Shown here: piece after piece, positions 1 through 61,835 of the stretch
How the letters are laid out: every line of letters starts with the position of its first letter
Position numbering within the stretch: position 1 is the stretch's first letter
Assembly: GCA_003508835.1 (NCBI GenBank)
Contig: PUFA01000066.1
Span: forward strand, 9,132,501-9,196,500
Direction of reading: 5' to 3'
Origin: Eonycteris spelaea
Taxonomy: Eukaryota > Chordata > Mammalia > Chiroptera > Pteropodidae
Length of the DNA stretch: 64,000 nt
The notes under the pieces: model-generated
What the model saw: the letters and a program-made list of their open reading frames with translations, nothing else
Database searches by the model: none
Told to the model about the DNA's origin: nothing
Translations under genes and position numbers: made by a program

Positions 1-987
1 GTTCTTGATTCGCTGTCTCGAGGAGGACATTTACTTCCAAGTGAATGGCTGCGTATAGTCCAGGCTGTGCTTACCCGTGGTCAGTTTTTAACTTGGAAGG
101 CAGATTTTGCTGACCGCTGCCAGACCATCGCTGCTGCCAATGTAAAGGACCCTCATTCCCCAACAGCATCCTGGACTTTTGATAAGCTTACGGGACAGGG
201 CAGATATATCTCTGAAACTAGGCAGCAGCGCCTCCCCCTTGGTCTTTTATCTCAAGTGAAAGATGCGGCCTTGGGCGCTTGGATTTCACTCCCTGCTTCC
301 GGGACTGCTAATACTCCCCTAACTAAGATTACTCAAGGCTCGCAAGAAGATTACAGTGAATTTGTTAGCAGGCTGTTAGAGGCCGCCGAAAGAACACTTG
401 GTTCCGAGGCTGCCAATGATAAGATTGTAAAACAGTTGGCCTATGAAAACGCCAATTCGGCATGTCGAGCAGTCCTCCGAGGTAAGACTCGGGACAAAAC
501 TCTTGATGAAATGCTGAGAATGTGTAGAGATGTTGATCCTTTTACATCTAAAGTTCAAGCCCTTTTAGCTGTAGGTGCCGCTGTTCAGACTCCCCCGGCT
601 TCTTATCCTCCTCCCTTCCCCAGGGGCGCATCGCCTATGCGTAACTGCTTTAAATGTGGACAGCCAGGCCATTTCGCTCGCCAATGCCCTACCACGGCTC
701 CTCCTCCTAGAGTTGGGTCAATCCCCGGCATTTGCCCTCGCTGCCATAAGGGGCGGCACTGGGCCAAAGAGTGCCGTAGCAATCCAACAAATCCTTTTTA
801 CAGCACCACAAATCCTTTCACCCCCCCCTTTCAGGGAAACGGGCTGAGGGGCCAGCCCCGGGCCCCCCAGCCAATTCCATTCCAGCCGGCCTCGGGGAAC
901 AGCCAAGCTGTAGCACTCCCGCCCTCTATCGGGCCACACCCGGGAGTGCAGGACTTGACCTCTGTGCCTCCTCCTCAACAATATTAA
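1..987 (+). CDS. gag: gag, 3' part (capsid C-terminal region and nucleocapsid)
   Basis: The frame is open from base 1 to the TAA at 985-987 (328 codons visible); no start codon belongs here because the gene begins outside the window. Counting base 1 as codon 1, a major homology region of capsid (Q-G-x-x-E-x-x-x-x-F-V-x-R-L) begins near residue 112. Two CCHC zinc knuckles follow: CFKCGQPGHFARQC at residues 216-229 and CPRCHKGRHWAKEC at 245-258. Between and after them lies a proline-rich tail. Gag builds the immature particle and the knuckles bind genomic RNA. No PPPY or PTAP/PSAP late motif is seen in this part; it would be expected further upstream. The visible part shows no break. The last 50 codons overlap pro in the -1 frame. 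Confidence 0.93.
   Translation, partial: VLDSLSRGGHLLPSEWLRIVQAVLTRGQFLTWKADFADRCQTIAAANVKDPHSPTASWTFDKLTGQGRYISETRQQRLPLGLLSQVKDAALGAWISLPASGTANTPLTKITQGSQEDYSEFVSRLLEAAERTLGSEAANDKIVKQLAYENANSACRAVLRGKTRDKTLDEMLRMCRDVDPFTSKVQALLAVGAAVQTPPASYPPPFPRGASPMRNCFKCGQPGHFARQCPTTAPPPRVGSIPGICPRCHKGRHWAKECRSNPTNPFYSTTNPFTPPFQGNGLRGQPRAPQPIPFQPASGNSQAVALPPSIGPHPGVQDLTSVPPPQQY
834..866 (+). promoter_or_regulatory. gag-pro -1 ribosomal frameshift signal
   Basis: The heptamer G GGA AAC lies at 834-840 with its last two triplets in the gag frame, the standard X XXY YYZ layout and the kind of site known in betaretroviruses. A step back by one base enters the frame that carries dUTPase and protease and stays open. 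Downstream, GGGGCC (848-853) can pair with GGCCCC (861-866) around a 7-nt loop, 7 nt after the heptamer, a usual spacing. Alternatively GGGCTG (841-846) pairs with CAGCCC (853-858) while 848-852 pairs with 862-866, which would be a pseudoknot but with no spacer. Which fold forms is not known from the sequence alone. Confidence 0.85.
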
Positions 988-1756
988 CACCTGAAGAGGG
1001 AGTTACAATTATTTCTACAGGAATTTATGGCCCACCTCCAAAAGATACCTATTTTCTAATTTTAGGGCGAGCTTCCACCACGATAAACGGCCTTATTGTC
1101 CACCCTTCCTTAGTTGACAATGACTATACTGGAGAAATAAAAATTCTTGCTAGTGCCCCTCAGTGCCCTGTCAGTATTATGAAAGGCCAGCGCCTTGCGC
1201 AGGCGCTCCCCCTCCCTTTAAGTACATCTTACCCTGCTATCCATAAAAAGCGAGGCCCCTCTACCCCAGGTTCTTCAGACTTATATTGGGTCCAGGCTAT
1301 TACTAAAGAACGCCCTACCCTTAAACTTAAGATCCAAGGAAAATTATTTGGAGGGATTTTAGATTCGGGGGCCGACTCTACGGTCATATCTCAGGCTTCA
1401 TGGCCCCCCAGCTGGCCCTTACACGCCTCCTTGACCCATTTGCAAGGAATTGGGCAGTCAAGAAACACTTTACAAAGTTCACAGTTATTGAACTGGGAAG
1501 ATGAAGTAGGAAATACGGATTCATTCAGCCTTTCGTAGTTCCTGGGTTGCCGGTAAATCTTTGGGGAAGAGATATCCTTTCCCAAATGAAGGTCATCATG
1601 TGTAGCCCTAATGAAGTTGTAGCACAGCAGATGCTTTCACAAGGTTACCTCCCTGGTCAAGGGTTGGGCAAACTAAAACAGGGAGATCCCAGCCCAATAC
1701 TGGCTACGCCTAAGACAGACCGCTCAGGTTTAGGGTTTGAAAAACATTTTTTGTAA
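840..1756 (+). pseudogene. pro: pro: dUTPase, aspartic protease and G-patch, one frameshift
   Basis: Read in the -1 frame from the gag slip site. First comes a trimeric dUTPase with the start motif RATPGSAGLDL near 930-960, GRAS near 1068, YTGEI near 1125 and GQRLAQ near 1185; it hydrolyses dUTP. The protease follows with the catalytic LDSGAD at 1359-1376, serine in place of the commoner threonine, and a flap-like segment after it. Between about 1512 and 1523 the homology passes to the neighbouring frame (net loss of one base), so the original frame stops at 1536-1538. The second frame carries the protease end with NLWGRDIL near 1556 and a glycine-rich G-patch (GYLPGQGLGK, about 1642-1671), then stops at 1754-1756. 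The protease cannot be completed in one frame as read. Confidence 0.88.
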
Positions 1757-2829
1757 GGGCCGTTGCTCCTCCTGCACTCCAAGCAGACAAGATTACTTGG
1801 AAAAGTGATGTTCCTGTCTGGATCGATCAATGGCCCCTTACTACTACAAAATTAAATGCAGCCATAGAGTTAGTGCAGGAACAGCTGGCTGCTGGACATA
1901 TTGAACCTTCTACATCCCCTTGGAACACTCCAATCTTTGTAATCCAAAAGAAATCAGGCAAATGGCGGCTCTTACAAGACCTCAGGGCGGTCAATAAGAC
2001 TATGGTCCCTATGGGCGCATTACAACCTGGAATTCCCTCTCCAATAGCCATCCCTAAAGGGTATGTCAAATTAGTTATTGATCTAAAAGATTGCTTTTTC
2101 TCCATACCTTTACATCCTGATGATTGCAAACGTTTTGCCTTTAGTTTACCCATTACCAATTGTGTAGGGCCTTCTCCTCGGTTTCAATGGAGAGTCCTCC
2201 CACAAGGAATGGCCAACAGCCCTACTCTTTGCCAAAAATTTGTAGCCCAGACTATAGACCCCTTTAGGTTGCTCTTCCCCACTTTGTATATTATCCATTA
2301 TATGGATGATATTCTTCTTGCCGGTCCTGACCAGCAACAGCTCTATGCGGCCAGTCAGCAACTAGTCACTGCCCTCCGAGATCGAGGACTACACATTTCC
2401 CCAGAAAAAGTCCAGGTCCACCCCCCTCAACTATTTTTAGGCTTTGAATTATTTTCTAATAAAATCCTCACTCAAAAAATTCAGCTAAAGAGAAGCTCCT
2501 TAAACACTCTTAATGATTTTCAGCGTCTGCTAGGAGACATCAATTGGCTTAGACCTTATTTAAAACTGACCACCGGAGAGTTAAAGCCCTTGTTTGATGT
2601 CCTACGCGGAGATCCTGATCCCTCCTCCCCCCGCTCGCTTTCACCAGAAGCACAAAGGGCGTTAACCATTGTAGAGCGGGCTATTTCTGAACAGACCATT
2701 AGCTACTTCTCTCCACATTTAAGTTTGTGGCTGCTCATTTTTCCCACTCCCTTCTCCCCTACAGGAGTCCTTTGGCAAAACCATCCACTATTTTGGGTTC
2801 ATTTGCCAGCCTCCCCCCTAGAGTCTTAG
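1741..2829 (+). CDS. pol: pol module 1: reverse transcriptase, open
   Basis: This frame opens at 1741 after a TGA at 1738-1740 and is meant to be entered by frameshift, so a methionine start is not needed; an internal GTG at 1873 is not a real start. The fingers and palm are present: the segment KWRLLQDLR, the catalytic aspartate in LVIDLKDCF, LPQGMANSP at 2197-2223 and the YMDD catalytic motif at 2299-2310, followed by thumb residues (LLGDINWLRPYL). The enzyme copies viral RNA into DNA. The frame stops at 2827-2829, but the homology continues in another frame right after a run of six C at 2813-2818, so this stop reflects a one-base loss and not the natural end. Confidence 0.93.
   Translation, partial: KTFFVRAVAPPALQADKITWKSDVPVWIDQWPLTTTKLNAAIELVQEQLAAGHIEPSTSPWNTPIFVIQKKSGKWRLLQDLRAVNKTMVPMGALQPGIPSPIAIPKGYVKLVIDLKDCFFSIPLHPDDCKRFAFSLPITNCVGPSPRFQWRVLPQGMANSPTLCQKFVAQTIDPFRLLFPTLYIIHYMDDILLAGPDQQQLYAASQQLVTALRDRGLHISPEKVQVHPPQLFLGFELFSNKILTQKIQLKRSSLNTLNDFQRLLGDINWLRPYLKLTTGELKPLFDVLRGDPDPSSPRSLSPEAQRALTIVERAISEQTISYFSPHLSLWLLIFPTPFSPTGVLWQNHPLFWVHLPASPLES
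1747..1753 (+). promoter_or_regulatory. Candidate pro-pol -1 slippery site
   Basis: T TTT TTG sits in register just before the pro stop codon at 1754-1756. Slipping back one base enters the frame that is open from 1741 and encodes reverse transcriptase. The heptamer type is a recognised slippery sequence. I see no convincing hairpin directly downstream, so the stimulating structure is unproven. Confidence 0.65.
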
Positions 2830-3475
2830 CTACCTATCCTCAATTAGTTGCTGCCCTCTTACGTTTAGGCCGAGAGGCAGCCCTCAAGTTGTTCGGGAGA
2901 GACCCTGAAGTTATAACCCTCCCATACAACACGTCTCAGTTACAATGGCTTATTCAACATGATGATGATTGGGCAATCAGCTGCACCTCCTTCCAGGGGA
3001 CAATAGACAATCATTACCCTGCGGACAGATTAGTCCAGTTCCTTCAAAAGACCCCGGTTGTCTTTCCCAAAAGGACTAAAACCACACCAATTGCTGGGGC
3101 CGTAATGGTGTTCTCTGATGGGTCCTCCTCCGGTATAGCCGCCTTCAGCATTAATGGGCAGATTACTCGAATACAGACAGACTCTCCTCTGCACAGCTTG
3201 TTGAATTAACTGCAATAATCAAGGTTTTTGAGCTTTTAATAGATGCCCCCTTTAACCTTTACACTGATAGTGCCTATGTAGCCACCTCTGTTCCCCTATT
3301 AGAGACAGTGCCTTACATACGTCCCTCTACAAATGCTTCCCCCCTATTCGCAAAATTACAAAAACTAATTCTAAACCGCGGTGCCCCTTTTTTCATCGGG
3401 CACATACGCGCTCACTCTGGCCTTCCGGGGCCGCTTGCCAAGGCAATGACAGGGTTGATCTGGCAACTCAATTAG
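2800..3475 (+). pseudogene. pol: pol module 2: connection and RNase H, broken by frameshifts
   Basis: After the RT frame breaks, the connection domain continues one frame over up to the stop at 3207-3209. It contains the first RNase H aspartate in FSDGSSSG (gat at 3118-3120). Around 3180-3192 the homology moves to a further frame, carrying a second RNase H motif LYTDSAYVA (aspartate at 3266-3268) and the C-terminal AHSGLPGP segment. Around 3434-3443 it moves again, into the integrase frame; the RNase H frame itself meets a TAG at 3473-3475. RNase H degrades the RNA strand of the hybrid during reverse transcription. The motifs survive but no single frame covers the domain. Confidence 0.88.
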
Positions 3476-4362
3476 TAGCCTCTGTCACGTCAGACTCACC
3501 CTTGGTTGCAGCCCAACGGGCTCATGAACTACATCATCTCAATGCTCACACTCTTAGACTCAAATTTTCAATCACCCGAGAACAGGCCCGCCAAATAGTT
3601 CGGCAATGTCAAGGATGCCTAACTCTCCTCCCAGAGCCTCATACCGGAATCAACCCCCGGGGGTTAGTCCCAGGAGAGATATGGCAAATGGATGTCACTC
3701 ATTACCCTCCCTTTGGTAAATTAAAATATATTCATGTGTCTATTGACACCTGCAGTGGTTTTCTATGTGCATCCTTGCAAACGGGAGAGGCAACTAAAAA
3801 CGTTATTACCCATGTTCTCTCATGCCTGGCATATCTGCCACAACCTAAAGTTTTAAAAACTGACAATGGCCCTGGATACGCCAGCTCTAGCTTTAAACAG
3901 TTCTGTGCACAGTTAGGTATTAAGCACATAACGGGAATTCCTTATAATCCCCAAGGCCAAGGTATTGTTGAAAGAGCCCACTTAACTCTTAAAAACATGT
4001 TATTCAAACTTCAGTCGGGGGGAGAAGCACTCTACCCGAAAACAGGTAATGCAAAGACACTCCTAAATCATGCACTATTTGTTCTCAATTTTCTTACCCA
4101 TGACTCCGCGGGTAAAACCGCTGCTGATCGCCTTTGGCATCCCTCCACGGCAGATAACTATGCACAGGCTATGTGGAAAGATCCGATGACCAACACATGG
4201 CACGGGCCTGACCCTGTACTCATATGGGGGAAAGGACATGCTTGTATATATGATGCTAAGGTACAAAATGCCCGATGGCTCCCAGATAGACTCATTAAAC
4301 CCCTAGACACAAATAAAAGCAAAAACAATAATAATTCCAATCCAGGGCATATTAACCCCTGA
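3440..4362 (+). CDS. pol: pol module 3: integrase, open
   Basis: The frame is open from about 3440 to the TGA at 4360-4362. The N-terminal HHCC zinc-binding domain has histidines in HELHH (from 3523) and the cysteine pair in CQGC (3607-3618). The catalytic core shows the D, D-35-E triad: Asp at 3691-3693 (WQMDVTH), Asp at 3862-3864 (KTDNGPGY) and Glu at 3970-3972 (GIVERAH). The C-terminal DNA-binding domain ends in a lysine/asparagine-rich tail. Integrase inserts the viral DNA into the host chromosome. All key residues are present; the module is joined to RT only through the broken RNase H stretch. Env begins 37 bases after the stop. Confidence 0.93.
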
Positions 4363-4399
4363 GAAGCCTTCCCTTTTTGTTTATTTTCAGGAGGCAAAA

Positions 4400-6399
4400 A
4401 TGAAGACATGCACGCTACTGATCCTCGTCATGGCCCTTCGCCCCGTTTGGACCCATCAAATTCTCAATTTCACCTGGACAGTCACCAATGAAGCAGGAGA
4501 CGTCGCCTTCAATTCTCCACATTAGCAAGTACCCCCCCTGGCCCGTTCTTACCCCTGATCTCTGTGATCTGGCTGCCGGAGCTTCCGCGGCCTGGGGACT
4601 CCCAGACCTTTACCTCCCCCTTCCCAAGCTCCCCCCCTTGACAATGCTCCCACTCACTCTAGCCCGTTCCCCTGGGTGTCATACCGCCGTAAAAAGAACC
4701 TATCTCAGAGAAACAGAGTTTTATGTTTGCCCTGGAGCTCATAGAGATCGAACCCTTAACTATAAATGTGGATACAGAGACTCCTATTTCTGTGGCTCCT
4801 GGGGGTGTGAGACCACGGGAGACGCTAGTTGGAAGCCTAGCTCCACTTGGGATTATATAACTGTAAGTAGGACTTGGAATCCCAAGCGTAACTCAACCGT
4901 ACCCACTCCCGAATGTCAAAACACCGATCCACAGGGGGACGATGTACACCGCTCTCCATTGCCTTTACTGACAAGGGAAAAAGGGCCCCTATTGATGGAT
5001 GGCTCAGGGGACATGAATGGGGGCTAAGGCTTTATATTTCAGGAACTGACCCTGGGCTCACTTTTAAATCAAATTACTTCGATCCATTCCAAACGCCAAC
5101 AAGCACGTTATCCTTGGCCCTATTGCCCCTAAGACAAAAGACCCAAAACCTTCTAACCCTTCCCCCCTGTCTGCTAGTACTGTTTTCCAGGCTTTGCTCC
5201 CCCCGGTTTTACCCTCTACAGGCGAAATCCTTAAAGGCCTGGCTAATGTGACTGCAGAATCCCTTAACTCCACTGGATATAGCGAGTGCTGGTTATGTTT
5301 CTCCCCCGTTCCCCCGTTTTACGAAGGGATAGCAGTTTTAGTCAATACCTCAGCAGACCTCATACTTACCAATGACTCCAGCAAGACTCGCTGGTCAGAT
5401 CCCTTCCGTTTTTCAGAGACCTCTCCGGGTCTCACGTTGGCTCAGCTTTCGGGAATAGGCCTCTGTATACATAGCCCCCTCTTGCGTCTACCCCCTCAGC
5501 TAGTACCCATTTGTAACAGCTCCTTCTCACCCCCGCTGTCCTATGAATATCTTGTCGCACCCAACGGTACTTATTTTGCTTGCTCCTTTGGCATAACGCC
5601 CTCCGTTAACCCGCGCTTACTAATATCTAACAATGAATATTGTGTTTTAGTCATGCTCATGCCCAAAATTTCCATACATCCCACCGAAGACCTCCTTCCA
5701 TATTACTCGGGCTCTGCTCGTACTAAGCGTGAGCCGGTAACCGCCATTACCTTATCTGTATTATTAGGATTGGGAGCAGCTGGGGCCGGAACAGGCATTG
5801 CCTCCATAATTACTTCTAAACAACAATATTATGCTCTTAGTCAGGCTATTGATAAAGACATACAAAATCTGCAAGAGGGTTTAGACAGCCTGAAGGAATC
5901 TGTTGTCTCTCTCTCAGAGGTAGTGCTCCAAAATCGCCGAGGGTTAGACCTCCTCTTCTTGAAAGAAGGAGGCCTCTGCGCTGCTCTTAAAGAAGAATGT
6001 TGCTTTTATAAAGACAAAACAGGATTAGTACAAGATAGCATCGATAAAGTTAAGAAAAACCTAGAGGCCAGGCAAAAACAAAGAGAAAAAGATGAGGCCT
6101 GGTACAAAAACTGGACCTCTGCCACCCCTTGGCTAACTACTCTGATCCCCGCCATCCTTGGACCCTTGGCAGGATTCTTCCTTTTAGTGTCTCTTGGCCC
6201 CTGGGCCTTAAGAAAACTGACAGTTTTTATTCGAGAGCAGGTTGACCAGCTCGTCAAGCCAGCGGTTGCTGTTCATTATCACAGACTTACAGCCTGTGAT
6301 GAAGAGTCTTGCATCGAGCCAACCAATGCTCCAGGTCTCCGGTTCTCAACTTTACAGGCGCCTCGACCGTGGTACCATCGATTTTGGCGCCGTACTTAA
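4400..6399 (+). pseudogene. env: env, gammaretroviral-type, SU half broken
   Basis: The ATG at 4400-4402 opens a hydrophobic signal peptide (TLLILVMAL) but the frame ends in TAG at 4523-4525 after 41 codons. SU homology continues one frame over, past a run of seven C at 4532-4538, until 5025-5027. Near the five-G run at 4934-4938 it shifts again, and between about 5060 and 5107 it moves to the frame that stays open to the end. So at least three shifts plus a nonsense codon hit SU, while the C-terminal part is spared. Several Cys and N-x-S/T sites fit a secreted surface glycoprotein. SU would bind the host receptor. As read it cannot be made whole. Confidence 0.88.
5107..6399 (+). CDS. env: env C-terminal open frame: SU end plus complete TM
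   Basis: This frame is open for about 430 codons to the TAA at 6397-6399; an in-frame ATG is not near its start (5194 is CTG-like), so translation as a separate protein is uncertain. Order of features: CWLC at 5287-5298 (the SU motif that isomerises a disulfide with TM), furin-type RTKR at 5719-5730, a glycine/alanine-rich fusion peptide, a heptad helix, an immunosuppressive-type segment beginning [13 protein letters not shown]6CC at 5977-6003, a second helical stretch, a membrane span from about 6130 to 6210 and a cytoplasmic tail of about 60 residues. The TM subunit drives membrane fusion. All structural landmarks are intact, in contrast to SU upstream. Confidence 0.9.
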
Positions 6400-6719
6400 T
6401 ATGGCTCATATGCTGGTCCGCCAGAACCAGGCATACCCCTAAGTATATGAGGGTATGGGCATCGAGATGAGTGCGAGACAAAGTACTGCAAGGGAGGGTT
6501 CTTCTAGAACCTCTCTGGTCCTCCCTGAGAATACGCCTGGCTTGCATAGAGGTTGGTATCCATATGTACATAAAGCCTTGATATATTAAGATCAATTTGG
6601 CTTTCAGCTCTGCCTCTCCTCCCCAAAAGATACCGAGAGCATTTGCAGGATGTTACCCTGCTGGAGGAGCCAGGCCTCTATTCCCTCACTCGATTAAGGC
6701 CCACCTTTCTAAAATAAAT
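6400..6719 (+). other. env-LTR spacer with candidate RNA hairpin
   Basis: No gene is seen between the env stop and the polypurine tract. In type D retroviruses this position carries the constitutive transport element, which exports unspliced RNA. Here GGTTCT (6498-6503) pairs with AGAACC (6507-6512) around a 3-nt loop, enclosed by AGGGAG (6492-6497) pairing with CTCCCT (6522-6527). I do not recognise the two-fold loop sequences of the known element, so function is a guess from position and shape. Confidence 0.4.
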
Positions 6720-6733
6720 AGAAAGGGAGGAGA
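6718..6733 (+). promoter_or_regulatory. Polypurine tract
   Basis: A run of A and G (about 6720-6733, with AAAGGGAGGAGA) directly precedes the TG that starts the LTR. This is the expected RNase H-resistant primer for plus-strand synthesis. Confidence 0.8.
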
Positions 6734-6813
6734 TGTCGGGAGCCACACAAAGACAAAAAGATGGCCACGGTTCATGAGGTTCCTGCTTCACTTCCTGGAG
6801 ATTAGCTGCAAGC

Positions 6814-6847
6814 CCGCGCGCGCCAACAATGAAGCCGCGCGCGCCAA
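6814..6847 (+). promoter_or_regulatory. Repeated GCGCGCC block in U3, E2F-like
   Basis: The 13-mer CCGCGCGCGCCAA occurs at 6814-6826 and again at 6835-6847, 21 bp apart. On the minus strand the second copy reads TTTTGGCGCGC, which contains the E2F consensus TTTSSCGC; the first copy is one base off. Binding is inferred from the motif only. Confidence 0.5.
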
Positions 6848-6978
6848 AAGATACTCTTCTCTCCCCTCCTTCCCCATTATCATATACCAATCAGAATGTA
6901 GCTTATTGCCACCCCTGCTACGCGGCCAATCCCCTGCCTACATGTATCCTATAGCCCACTCCGCCCCTGAACACCAGT

Positions 6979-6987
6979 GTATATATA
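6979..6987 (+). promoter_or_regulatory. LTR TATA box
   Basis: GTATATATA at 6979-6987 in an LTR-like setting, with CCAAT motifs 60-95 bp upstream. Transcription would start at about 7008-7015. Confidence 0.75.
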
Positions 6988-6999
6988 CCCCTGTCTCAC

Positions 7000-7005
7000 A
7001 ATAAA
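7000..7005 (+). terminator. LTR polyadenylation signal
   Basis: AATAAA at 7000-7005. It lies between TATA and the predicted cap site, so in the 3' LTR cleavage would follow shortly after R begins, as in other viruses with a short R. Confidence 0.75.
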
Positions 7006-7119
7006 ATTTGAAGGCTTGATCAGAGTATTGTCTTGCCTTCGCTCTTCTCTCGCCCCCATTTTCTTTCAGGTCGGATCCTCCTCGTCCCCACAAATAACTA
7101 GGTCCCGCGGGTCGGGACA

Positions 7120-9124
7120 CACTGGCAATCTGCGGTTACCTTCCGCACGATCTAATTGAGGACCCAGTGGAATAGACCAAGTGTCACAGGTTCTCCGTCT
7201 CAGAACCTGCAGGCATGTGGAACCCCTCACCCCACCACTGAAATGCTGAACGCTGCCTGGGGCAGAGTCAGGCCACATGTGGGGACTGTCCCCCCACACA
7301 CACCTTTTCTGATCTAATGCAAAGTTCCCGGGGGACAGGGCATCCCAGGCAGGATCGTGGGGGGTGGGGTAGAAATCCTGGGTTTCCGGAGTAGACATGA
7401 ACCCGATGTCCAGGGAGGCGTTCTGTTCCGTTCTGTTTTGAGGAAAGAGGTGTGGAATGCTCCCCACTCCCTTGTCTCTCCATTCTGAGCATCTGTGAGC
7501 ACGGAGCTCGCATTGGGGAGGCAGGGCTGGTCCTGGGGTGGGCCCCTGAGCGGGACAGATGCAGACGGGCACTTCGGTGGCAAGAGATGCCCTGGCAGAG
7601 AGACAGAGAGCGGGAAGGAGAGGGAACGAGAGAGTGAATGGATCGTGGTTGCTGTCACGGGGCTGTGGTGGTGGCCTGTCCTCCTCCTGGCCACGGGCCC
7701 TTCCCCACCACGCGAGTCCAGGCACCGCGGAGTCGGGGGCACTGGCCCTCGACGCCCCTCACGCCTGTCTCCTGTGCTCTCTCTGCCGTCACCTCTGCCG
7801 TCACTCCCACGGTTCCCCAGGGACTCTCTCCGGGGTCTTTGCAGCAGCACCCGTCCCTAGAAATCGACATTCCCACGGGGGTAACACATTTCTTAGCGGT
7901 GGGACGGGCAGGCAGTGACCTGCCTGTGTGCCGCACGCAGCACGCAGCCCACCGTCTGCCTGCGCGGGGGGACGGGAGGCTCGTGCTGGTGACAGCCGTG
8001 GCCCCCAGTTCCTCGCCCCATGCAAGGTAGAAAAGGTCTTTCAAATTCTAACTATGGATTCTGTCGATAATTCTAATAACAGCTTGTGATAATTAAATAG
8101 AATCAGCCTATAGGTTTTTAACATGAAAGGAGAAACAATTTGCTGAGATAAGCCAGTTTGAAAAAAAAAATGAAACTGCTTGTGTCATGTATTTATGGAG
8201 AGAAACTCATTTTCCCATCCAATTTTAGCGCGCTGTTTCATGTTGGGGAATAAATAGGCGCTTCTGCTAACAGTGGCCGCCTCTGACGGAGACACAGGTG
8301 ACACGTCACGTCGCCGTCTCCTCAGACCCAGGCCAGTGATGGAAAACGGTCGTTAAGGTGTGAGAACCTCACCGACCCGCCAAGCTACTTCCTGCGCCCT
8401 CTTTTTATTTACACTCCTCACCTCAGTGCTCCCGTCCTGGGCACGTGTGTGAACTTGAACCTCCTCGGCTAGGACGTTTGTGAGCATGTGAGGGTGGCCT
8501 GGGCCGGGCCAGGTCAGCATGCTGGGCCGCACCTGCCCGTCAGGCCCCTTATGACACTTCCGGCCGTCCTCGGCATGCCGGGGCGAGCACAGTTTGCCAC
8601 CTGTTTCTGCTCGGTCCCTCACAGGAAGTGTTTGCAGAACTGCTCAACAGGCCCTCCCTGGGCTCCGGGGCCCAGCCTGGCCATGGGAGTCAGCATGGCG
8701 GGCGGGGGACCGAGAGGAGGCGAGGCTGGTGAGGCTGAGTTCCTATTAGGTGGGGCTTGGGGGCGATTCGCTCCTGGAAAACGGAAGAGAGCCAGAGAGG
8801 CACGAATAGGGGGACTGGTGCCAGGTCCAGGGAGAGCGCCCAAGCTGCTCAGTGTGGGACGTTGAGCAGGAGGGAGAGAGCATCTGAGGGCAGTGGAGGG
8901 GGAGGAAGGACAGTGAGGGACAGCGCGGGGAGGCGGGAAGGGGATTTGAAATCAAAGCCTCGCTGCGCTATGGGTTAGCGCTGCCTCCTCTTTGATGTTC
9001 TTTGACGAGCTCCAAGAAGCAGTGGAGTGGCCGCTCTGCTCTGCGGAGTGTGGTGGCTGTGCTTCTCCATGTGGCTCCTTCCGCAGCTAGGTCATACGCT
9101 GCGGTGACACGTGGCCCCGTTGTG
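7120..9124. other. Unique GC-rich host DNA with one AT-rich island
   Basis: The first host sequence after the LTR. Overlapping frames on both strands at 7300-8030 come from GC-rich, stop-poor DNA and show no recognisable domain. 8040-8275 is an AT-rich, CpG-poor island that contrasts with its surroundings. 8860-8945 is purine-rich. No repeat family recognised. Confidence 0.5.
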
Positions 9125-58990: not shown

Positions 58991-60120
58991 GTAGTTGTGT
59001 GGACTGCCTGTCGACCTGAGAGCTCACTCCTATGTCGGTGGCTTCTGGCCAGTGACAGTGGCTTGGAGACCTTTGTTCTTCCACAAGTACCTTGAGGTGA
59101 TGACTTTTGGGGCTGCTATTGACTTTAGAGAGTCAGTTAATATGGCCCATATAAGGCTCCTCAGAACAGGCAAGAATTATATGAAGCATTGTTGTTTTTA
59201 ACATCAGCATCCTTGAAAAGTATTCTTATTATTTACCCTTCTGGACGGGCCCGTGAGCTATAAGAAGTTTTTCTAACTATTTGAGAATCTCTGAAAAAGC
59301 GAACCGGTTATCTTTGAGATGTAGAAAACATGAAATATAGAAACGATGTTGTTGGTATTTCCTGGACTGCCCACCGCCACCCTGCCCACGATCCGCTCCT
59401 CGTCTCTGTCCCCTCCTGTCTGGACCCACGGGCAAGCGCCGCGCAAAAGTCAGAGGCGTGATACGTTTGTTTTTCACACTGGTGGCGGTCGGCGGGTCTG
59501 ATGCCAGTCTGAACGCAGTCCCGCGCACCGGCTGCCTGCGCGCGACGCCTCCCCCTGAGCGGGACGCCTCCCCCTGCGCGCGACGACTTCCCCCCCCCCG
59601 CCCCCCCTCGCCGAGCGGAACGCCTCCCCTGCGCGCGACGCCTCCCCCTGCGCGCGACGCCTCCCCCTGCGCGCGACGCCTCCCCCTGCACGCGACGCCT
59701 CGCCACCTGCAGACAAGGGGAATTTGTTTCCCCATTTGTATTCACGACACTCAGGATCTGAATCGGCCATTCGACTGTCCCCAACCCTCTTTGAAACAAA
59801 TTAGTGGAGTCAATTGCTTCTGGCCGAGGTCTCACGTGTTGTGCGAAAGCGACCTAGATGCCAAGCTGCGTTCCAGCGCCAGTCTCCAGCGCAGGAGACA
59901 TAACGGGGCCGTGACAGGCCTTCTCCCCGGCCTGGAAAGGGGCCAGCAGTGCGGGGCACGGAGCAGCTGTCTCAGCCCCACGCCCTGAGGTATCGTGTCC
60001 AGGGGACGAGGGGGCGGAGGCGGTTCCCCCACAGAGGACAGACGAGAGGGTGGAGCGCCATGGAACTGCGCCCCAACCCGGGGAGGGGTCCAGCCCGCGG
60101 AGGGGAGGCTGGTGACATTA

Positions 60121-61039: not shown

Positions 61040-61835
61040 ACCCTCAGCGCTGTCCCTTGGCCCTGGGCCACCGTCATCATCTGCTGCCTGGGTTACTGCG
61101 GCGGCCTCCGGACTCAGCCGCCTGCCTCCCCCTGCGACTCTGCGCAGCGTCCTTCAGAGCAGCGAGAGAGCTGCCTCTTAGTCACAGGCGAGGTGGCGTC
61201 CCAGCTCAGCTCAGCTCACGGCCCTTCCCCGGAGCCGTGGTCCTTCCTGTCATCTTCCAGGTCCGTCCCAGCCGCCCCCAGGACCCCCAGGACCACCTCC
61301 CCGCTCCCTCCACCCCCTTGCTCCCTGCACCGCAGTCCCCAGGACCCCCGGGACCACCTCCCCGCTCCCTCCACCCCCTTGCTCCCTGCACCACAGTCCC
61401 CAGAACCCCAGGACCACCTCCCCGCTCCCCGGCTCCCTGCACCGCAGCCCCGCCGTCGGGCCAGGAGATGCCCACCCACTGCTGCCCACAGACCTCCCAC
61501 CTCCCGGCAGAAAGCCGCGGGCTGGCTGCCTCGCCTTCCCCAGCTGTAAGCTTCTTGCCAAGGTCTTTAACCATTCTATTTAAAATCGCGTCCTCCTACC
61601 CGCTCTCACAAGTCCCTATCCCATATCCATGGTAATTTTTAATGCTGCTTATTACCTTCTTACGTATTATATAATCTAGTCATTTCTGAGGTTAATATCT
61701 TTCCTAGCAGAATGAAAACTCCTGCTGGAGTATTAGCGGGGAGTTTCATTCCGTTCTCTGATACATCTCGAGCATCCAGAAGACTACCTGGCATATGGTG
61801 GGAGCTGTGTAATTGATGGATTAATAAAAATGGAA
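61040..61835 (+). repeat. L2 copy interrupted by a minisatellite
   Basis: ACCGTCATCATCTGCTGCCT, GTTACTGCGGCGGCCTCCGG and CAGAGCAGCGAGAGAGCTGC follow L2. After the 61-bp array, GAATGAAAACTCCTGCTGGA and the CTGGCATATGGTGG tail return to L2. Confidence 0.75.
61275..61455. repeat. 61-bp minisatellite, about three copies
   Basis: GGACCACCTCCCCGCTCC begins at 61290, 61351 and 61411. The third unit is shortened after the CCCCGCTCC part. The array lies inside an L2. Confidence 0.93.

What the first reader, a model, noticed from the sequence alone, without database searches (positions are those of the whole stretch)
1..7119. Type D-like endogenous retrovirus with betaretroviral core and gammaretroviral-type env
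The dUTPase-protease-G-patch gene in a separate frame and the RTKR/CX6CC envelope belong to different retroviral genera; the mix is known from simian type D viruses but sets this copy apart from most mammalian ERVs. It may represent an unnamed lineage in its host.
Basis: partly seen in the sequence, partly recalled or inferred. Interest (0 to 1): 0.75.

Follow-up and report, generated by a model that had tools for sequence, protein, structure and literature searches.

The report
Broken betaretrovirus with gamma-type envelope
The window starts with the damaged remains of an ancient mammalian retrovirus whose core genes and outer-coat gene came from two different retrovirus groups, a mix already known from several animals, although a relative suggests that the outer part of the coat was exchanged while its tail stayed with the core.

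Summary
Bases 1-7119 are the 3' part of one + strand provirus, from mid-gag (cut by the window edge) to a 386-base 3' LTR (6734-7119). Gag, dUTPase-protease-G-patch, RT and integrase are betaretrovirus-like; Env is gamma-type (RTKR, CXXC, CX6CC). Pro, pol and env are broken.

The reading is partly right. The mix is real, but the Env is not shown to be the simian type D one: its receptor-binding piece matches gammaretroviral surface structures, SDGG is absent from the readable env pieces, and its TM lies in a 34-row clade (of 59; 99/99) apart from classical gammaretroviruses. Betaretroviral cores with gamma-type envelopes are already described (bat group VIII, marsupial MEBrv 1, pangolin ERV-Beta.a). 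Host, copy number and 5' LTR could not be checked: all 12 own-genome searches did not complete.

One new thing: a database envelope (P0016, Retroviridae sp.) is nearest a Manis ERV-Fc record over most of its ectodomain, then switches at the membrane span to a tail 90% identical to this provirus. P0024 looks like the converse. This suggests that the ectodomain is exchanged and the tail stays with the core; P0016 may be a chimeric assembly and neither core has been seen.

The parts
1..987 (+). gag, 3' part: capsid (from within the p24 N-terminal domain) and two CCHC knuckles; open frame from the window edge to its stop
   Evidence: frame 1-987; PF00607, PF19317, PF00098, PF14787
834..840 (+). 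gag-pro -1 slippery heptamer GGGAAAC in the right phase, followed by a GC-rich hairpin
   Evidence: position and phase; hairpin predicted but not better than shuffles (z -0.80 for 834-920, -0.69 for 841-910). Role inferred from retroviral frameshift sites (recalled)
780..1538 (+). pro: dUTPase plus N-terminal part of protease
   Evidence: PF00692; PF00077 positions 2-67; best PDB chains 2d4l, 1nso, 3sqf (recalled as M-PMV)
1505..1756 (+). pro continued in another frame: C-terminal part of protease and G-patch
   Evidence: RVP positions 73-98, G-patch 9-44
1747..1753 (+). possible pro-pol -1 slippery heptamer TTTTTTG, just before the pro stop at 1754-1756, in phase with the pol frame
   Evidence: role inferred
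1741..2829 (+). pol: reverse transcriptase with thumb
   Evidence: RVT_1, RVT_thumb; PDB 7sr6, E 1.3e-113; tree
2703..3209 (+). pol piece in a second frame, between RT thumb and RNase H
   Evidence: 130 of 155 aligned residues identical to P0121 232-394; no Pfam match
3155..3475 (+). pol piece in a third frame, RNase H
   Evidence: PF00075; 84 of 87 identical to P0121 395-481
3271..4362 (+). pol: integrase (Zn, core and DNA-binding domains at about 3511-4302)
   Evidence: best PDB 7usf, 3jca (recalled as MMTV integrase)
4400..4516 (+). env start (signal-peptide region), within frame 4307-4525
   Evidence: 34 of 38 residues identical to P0003 1-38
4422..5027 (+). env SU piece with receptor-binding domain (about 4527-4886)
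   Evidence: TLV_coat 32-155; 4 PDB sequences: 1aol, 9fqt, 9uat, 1lcs; RBD tree
4892..5251 (+). env SU piece, middle part, in the same frame as the env start piece
   Evidence: 48 of 73 identical to P0001 175-247
5068..6399 (+). env: SU C-terminal part with CWLC, RTKR cleavage site (5719), TM with CX6CC (about 5977-6003)
   Evidence: 428 of 443 identical to P0001
6100..6396 (+). membrane span and long cytoplasmic tail with YHRL, the part shared with the otherwise different envelope P0016
6720..6733 (+). polypurine tract immediately before the LTR
6734..7119 (+). 3' LTR, 386 bases, TGTCGGG...GGGACA, TATATATA at 6980, AATAAA at 7000
   Evidence: sequence; no second copy in 7120-64000. The 5' LTR lies off the window, so length and target duplication are not confirmed by pairing

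Best explanation
This is the 3' 7.1 kb of an inactivated class II (betaretrovirus-like, type D layout) provirus that entered a mammalian germline. Its gag-pro-pol is betaretroviral; its env was acquired by recombination from the gamma-type pool, from a lineage with an MLV-like receptor-binding domain. As a virus it would have made Gag-Pro-Pol by two -1 frameshifts, packaged its own RNA, and entered cells through a disulfide-linked SU-TM Env. The copy no longer does this: pro, pol and env are broken. Shown: domain make-up, frames, breaks, tree positions. Inferred: frameshifting, host class, route of acquisition. Within this lineage the exchangeable part of Env appears to be the ectodomain, while membrane span and cytoplasmic tail stay with the core, probably because the tail must fit Gag matrix; this last step rests on two database envelopes and is tentative (see the section on the most novel reading for its odds).
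For: Domain order and E-values. RT: PDB 7sr6 best with 383 bits against 177 for the next; RT tree of 118 rows puts the window with P0121 (96*), in a 7-row (98*) and a 20-row set (97*) that holds the rabbit 'ERVK-11 Pol' record P0124. Pro and integrase best PDB hits are betaretroviral by recall. SU piece: all 4 PDB sequences matched are surface proteins; 1lcs is named feline leukaemia virus, 1aol (GP70) I recall as Friend MLV. TM ectodomain: clade W of 34 rows against 25, 99/99 (97* among 121 rows). RBD: window in a 15-row set of 31 rows, all of clade W, 96/94. Tail: P0016 ectodomain with P0055 (Manis) and P0045 at 99/95, AU test against joining W p 0.031; span and tail with the window at 100/97, 82% identity; 20-residue windows switch at residues 561-580 of 656.
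Against: No 5' end, so provirus structure and age are unproven. No M-PMV, JSRV or MMTV Pol was available, so placement among named betaretroviruses is open. P0016 is a metagenome-assembled record and could be a chimera; it was picked after seeing the data, so the AU p is not clean; and its first 190 residues are not ERV-Fc-like (29-44% to P0055, 14-65% to P0001; its RBD groups with Sarcophilus P0017, P0036 and P0109 at 97/94). P0024's junction was not mapped, only cut at the same place, and its tail is a long branch. Sarcophilus P0017 is in clade W by TM but outside it by RBD. GP[WF] alone does not separate the tails (20 of 22 clade W rows counted, but also 11 of 86 others). The tail tree rests on 89 columns, with Monodelphis/Gracilinanus rows among W tails. 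Envelopes compared are the best 120 of 640 hits, themselves from a capped candidate list.
Confidence: 0.85

Rival explanations
1. It is a copy of an already named family, most likely the pangolin ERV-Beta.a-Mpen (betaretroviral core, Lys-1,2 primer site, gamma-type Env, LTR about 387 nt), so nothing about the lineage is new.
For: PMC12584738 gives an LTR length of 387 nt for the pangolin betas; here 386. P0016, whose tail is 90% identical to this one, has an ectodomain nearest a Manis javanica ERV-Fc record.
Against: The paper says that ERV-Beta.a Env SU and TM are closest to gamma ERVs of the pangolin genome, which would fit P0016 rather than this Env; the nearest named relative of this Env is from Pteropus alecto (67%). 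The host of the window is not identified, and LTRs of this size are not rare in type D-like viruses (about 300 in PMC3621094, 453 for MEBrv 1 in PMC11334065).
Confidence: 0.3
2. The Env is the same one as in simian type D viruses (RDR group, ASCT2 users), acquired once by the ancestor of group VIII betaretroviruses.
For: Hayward 2013 argued for a single event for group VIII. The AU test does not reject 4jf3 (recalled as M-PMV TM) joining the clade W rows (p 0.127).
Against: RBD piece matches gammaretroviral surface proteins, SDGG absent from the two main env pieces and from the 120 listed relatives, many of them partial; TM core only 46 of 100 identical to 4jf3, which groups with syncytins 1 and 2 at 100/99. 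PMC11334065 already infers at least two separate events.
Confidence: 0.1
3. Membrane span and tail are not a betaretroviral module at all; the whole Env including tail came from one gamma source, and P0016 and P0024 are assembly chimeras or misread.
For: P0016 is a MAG record; P0024 is from unnamed assemblies. No betaretroviral beta-type Env tail was compared, and P0024's junction was not mapped.
Against: The P0016 switch falls exactly at the domain boundary and in frame; P0024 changes affinity across the same boundary in the other direction and stands for 12 member sequences.
Confidence: 0.35

Closest known systems
Group VIII betaretroviruses of bats (PvERV-betaJ, K; PaERV-betaA), Hayward et al. 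2013, PMC3621094
   Same: Betaretroviral gag-pro-pol with dUTPase, gamma-type Env; nearest named Env relative here is Pteropus alecto LOC107195369 (67%)
   Different: The extra ORF from 40 bases after env to 15 bases into the LTR is absent here; primer site not in the window; no direct sequence comparison was possible
MEBrv 1 of dasyurid marsupials, PMC11334065
   Same: Type D core with an Env that clusters with type C gammaretroviruses, apart from M-PMV; Sarcophilus Env P0017 lies in clade W by TM
   Different: Only 49% Env identity and outside clade W by RBD; that P0017 belongs to MEBrv 1 is inferred
ERV-Beta.a-Mpen of Chinese pangolin, PMC12584738
   Same: Beta core, gamma-type Env, LTR of nearly equal length
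   Different: Env ectodomain described as nearest to pangolin gamma ERVs; host of this window unknown; no sequence compared
Simian type D viruses (M-PMV, SRV, SMRV; RDR interference group)
   Same: Gene order, dUTPase-PR-G-patch, CX6CC Env in a betaretroviral core (recalled and PMC3758190 passages)
   Different: RBD piece like gammaretroviral surface proteins, no SDGG in the main env pieces, TM core 46 of 100 to the chain recalled as M-PMV
ERV-Fc env in betaretrovirus-like genomes of mouse and rat, Diehl et al. 2016, PMC4798954
   Same: Precedent for ERV-Fc-like Env in betaretroviral genomes, as P0016 suggests
   Different: The passages seen (12 of 25 places) do not mention a junction at the membrane span; the whole paper was not read

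Membership tests
Betaretrovirus-like (class II) core | dUTPase in the pro frame | tested here: met
   PF00692 5.2e-21; best PDB 2d4l
Betaretrovirus-like (class II) core | two zinc knuckles in NC, G-patch after PR | tested here: met
Betaretrovirus-like (class II) core | RT and integrase group with class II | tested here: met
   but PDB virus names are recalled and the RT tree holds no named exogenous betaretrovirus
Betaretrovirus-like (class II) core | lysine tRNA primer binding site | not testable with these tools
   5' end lies off the window; own-genome search unanswered
Gamma-type Env | CXXC in SU, furin site, CX6CC in TM | tested here: met
RDR interference group (simian type D Env) | SDGGGXXDXXR receptor motif | tested here: not met
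   SDGG absent from the pieces 4422-5024 and 5068-6396; parts of SU in other frames were not tested
RDR interference group (simian type D Env) | TM groups with M-PMV/syncytins | tested here: inconclusive
   apart at 100/99, but AU p 0.127 for joining; M-PMV name of 4jf3 is recalled
Bat group VIII (Hayward 2013) | beta gag-pol with gamma-type env | tested here: met
Bat group VIII (Hayward 2013) | extra ORF between env and LTR (bat members) | tested here: not met
   no + strand stop-to-stop frame of 60 aa or more spans 6443-6581
ERV-Beta.a-Mpen | LTR about 387 nt | tested here: inconclusive
   386 here, ends set by sequence alone; no sequence of that family was available
ERV-Beta.a-Mpen | nucleotide identity of at least 80% to the family | not tested

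The most novel reading that the evidence does not exclude
In this betaretroviral lineage the envelope is modular at the membrane: ectodomains of different gamma-type origin (clade W here, ERV-Fc-like in P0016) have been plugged onto a conserved, core-matched membrane span and long tail, and a W ectodomain has in turn been plugged onto a gamma tail (P0024). The window would be one of two ectodomain states of the same backbone, possibly in one host order.
Probability: 0.35. Interest if true: 0.5.

Novelty: new member of a known kind. Interest (0 to 1): 0.3.

Why it matters
Betaretroviruses with gamma-type envelopes are a known outcome of env swapping. A copy with an MLV-like receptor-binding domain adds to the evidence (already in print for marsupials) that this happened more than once. 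If the tail-module reading holds, it gives a structural rule for how such swaps succeed: the outer part that meets the receptor changes, the inner part that meets Gag does not.

Tried and rejected
Named viruses in IMG/VR: three scans (RT; RT alignment A2; Env alignment A3) gave no relatives. Phage collection: no match. Rfam: nothing at gathering score in 64 kb; in 6380-7260 only a chance CRISPR repeat at E 8.7, so no Rfam family marks an RNA export element there. Folds of 6400-6549 and 6550-6699 are not better than shuffles (z -0.40, 0.53), giving no support for a transport element like that of M-PMV. Host genes: 10 frames, then the longest 148 of 585 frames of 60 aa or more in 7120-64000, gave no Pfam match; the host was not identified this way. 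No second LTR or retroviral piece in 7120-64000. Dating by LTR divergence was not possible. GP[WF] as a tail marker was tried and rejected as not discriminating.
Full report
What is there. Bases 1-7119 hold, on the + strand, the 3' part of a provirus. Pfam finds capsid and two zinc knuckles (1-987), dUTPase and the first part of the protease (780-1538), the rest of the protease and a G-patch in another frame (1505-1756), RT (1741-2829), RNase H (3155-3475), integrase (3271-4362) and a TLV_coat envelope in two main pieces (4422-5027, 5068-6399) (frames). A polypurine tract (6720-6733) leads into a 386-base 3' LTR, 6734-7119, with TG...CA ends, TATATATA at 6980 and AATAAA at 7000. The provirus runs off the window start inside capsid, so 5' LTR, leader and primer site are not seen. 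No other retroviral piece or LTR copy was found in 7120-64000.

State. The copy is broken. Protease is in two frames. Pol lies in four pieces in three frames, where the relative P0121 (532 aa) is continuous over the RT and RNase H part. Env lies in four pieces in three frames (4400-4516, 4422-5027, 4892-5251, 5068-6399). The last env frame, 443 residues, is 428 of 443 identical to P0001, a database envelope of 665 residues, so relatives with an uninterrupted env frame exist. A GGGAAAC heptamer at 834-840, in phase between gag and pro, and TTTTTTG at 1747-1753, in phase between pro and pol, look like the two -1 frameshift sites of this gene layout; the hairpin after the first is not more stable than shuffles. 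That they worked is inferred.

Core. The RT piece scores 383 bits to PDB 7sr6, against 177 for the next chain; dUTPase and protease score best to 2d4l, 1nso and 3sqf, integrase to 7usf and 3jca. I recall these as HERV-K, M-PMV and MMTV; the tables give only molecule names. The RT search listed 120 of 930 hits; I left out P0135 (the window's own translation), two more covered under 200 residues, and 117 plus the window went into the tree (quick, SH-aLRT only). The window pairs with P0121 (96*), then lies in a 7-row set (98*) and a 20-row set (97*) with the rabbit record P0124. Most rows have no name, and no M-PMV, JSRV or MMTV Pol was available.

Envelope. The SU piece matched four PDB sequences, 1aol, 9fqt, 9uat and 1lcs; 1lcs is named feline leukaemia virus, the others I recall or take as gammaretroviral. 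The 443-residue piece listed 120 of 640 hits, scored from the 7975 candidates sharing most words. With the TM ectodomain of all 120, the window lies in a 34-row clade (97*); in a careful tree of 59 rows (58 chosen of the 120, plus the window) the same 34 are one side of a branch at 99/99. I call it clade W; it holds records from Pteropus alecto, Sarcophilus, Apodemus, Suncus and Cricetulus. KoRV, GALV, FeLV, MuLV and ERV-Fc rows lie outside. In the RBD tree the window lies in a 15-row set of 31 rows at 96/94, all of clade W, but Sarcophilus P0017 falls outside it, so SU and TM do not agree for every row. SDGG, the core of the RDR motif, is absent from the two main window pieces and from the 120 listed relatives, many of them partial. 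PDB 4jf3, which I recall as M-PMV TM, is 46 of 100 identical and groups with syncytins 1 and 2 at 100/99, apart from the other 45 of 48 rows; forcing it to the clade W rows is not rejected (AU p 0.127). So a separate origin from the simian type D Env is likely on the RBD, not proven on the TM.

The tail. Identity by segment (120 rows) showed one odd row. P0016, named 'MAG: envelo...' of Retroviridae sp., is 34% and 54% identical to the window in the SU C-terminal part and TM ectodomain, but 67% in the membrane span (37 residues) and 90% in the tail (61 residues). Its TM ectodomain is nearest P0055, an ERV-Fc-type Env record of Manis javanica (113 of 128; 99/95 with P0045 and P0055; AU p 0.031 against joining clade W, with the caution that the row was picked after seeing the data). 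Its span and tail group with the window at 100/97. In 20-residue windows identity to P0055 is 47-100% from residue 191 to 560 and at most 55% from 571 on, while identity to P0001 is 80-100% from 571 on; both are 75% at 561-580. The first 190 residues of P0016 are like neither (29-44% to P0055, 14-65% to P0001), and its RBD groups with Sarcophilus P0017, P0036 and P0109 (97/94), so a third source for the RBD is possible. A search with span and tail of P0001 alone found 7 proteins, the query included, among 131 candidates; P0016 is at 82%. P0024 looks like the converse: TM ectodomain best to clade W rows (99 of 128), span and tail best to gammaretroviral rows (36 of 69); its junction was not mapped. 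Against this: P0016 may be a chimeric assembly; the tail tree has 89 columns, three extreme branches and Monodelphis/Gracilinanus rows among W tails; GP[WF] occurs in 20 of 22 clade W tails counted but also in 11 of 86 others (12 of the 120 rows could not be counted). A review states that the tail is involved in contacts with matrix and determines core preference (PMC9967133, passages), which would explain why tails stay with cores; that link is my inference.

What is known. Papers seen: PMC3621094 (outline, sections 5 and 9, passages) describes bat group VIII, betaretroviral cores with gamma-type env; its bat members carry an ORF between env and LTR that is absent here. PMC11334065 (passages) describes MEBrv 1, a type D core with type C-like env, and infers at least two acquisitions. 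PMC12584738 (parts 1-3 of 5 and passages) describes pangolin ERV-Beta.a with 387-nt LTRs and a gamma-type Env nearest to pangolin gamma ERVs. PMC10536682 and PMC3758190 (passages) review env swapping. PMC4798954 (passages) reports ERV-Fc-like TM in two betaretrovirus-like rodent genomes. For a paper on a junction at the membrane span I made two searches: one listed two papers, which I did not open, one listed none. Hence the provirus is a new member of a known kind at most, and perhaps a copy of a named family.

Open. The host is unknown. The near-equal LTR length and the Manis-like P0016 ectodomain hint at pangolin; the nearest named Env hints at a pteropodid bat. Neither is a test. Rfam and Pfam (148 of 585 flank frames in the larger scan) gave nothing, and the own-genome search was unanswered in all 12 calls. 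Age, copy number and lineage status therefore remain open.

Noticed in passing
P0016 residues 561-580 (database protein): Envelope of an unnamed Retroviridae record switches from ERV-Fc-like to this provirus's lineage at the start of the membrane span; its RBD fits neither.
   Followed up: partly
P0024 (database protein): Looks like the converse mosaic: clade W ectodomain with a gammaretrovirus-like span and tail.
   Followed up: partly
window 7120-64000: GC-rich flank (mostly 0.5-0.7 per kb); a self-comparison of the window gave only two repeat matches over 60 bases, few for a mammalian stretch.
   Followed up: no
window 59535-59701 and 61276-61429: Minisatellites of 19 and 61 bases.
   Followed up: no
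P0135: A 203-residue protein identical to part of the window RT is listed with a contig of 4788 bases and no source name.
   Followed up: no
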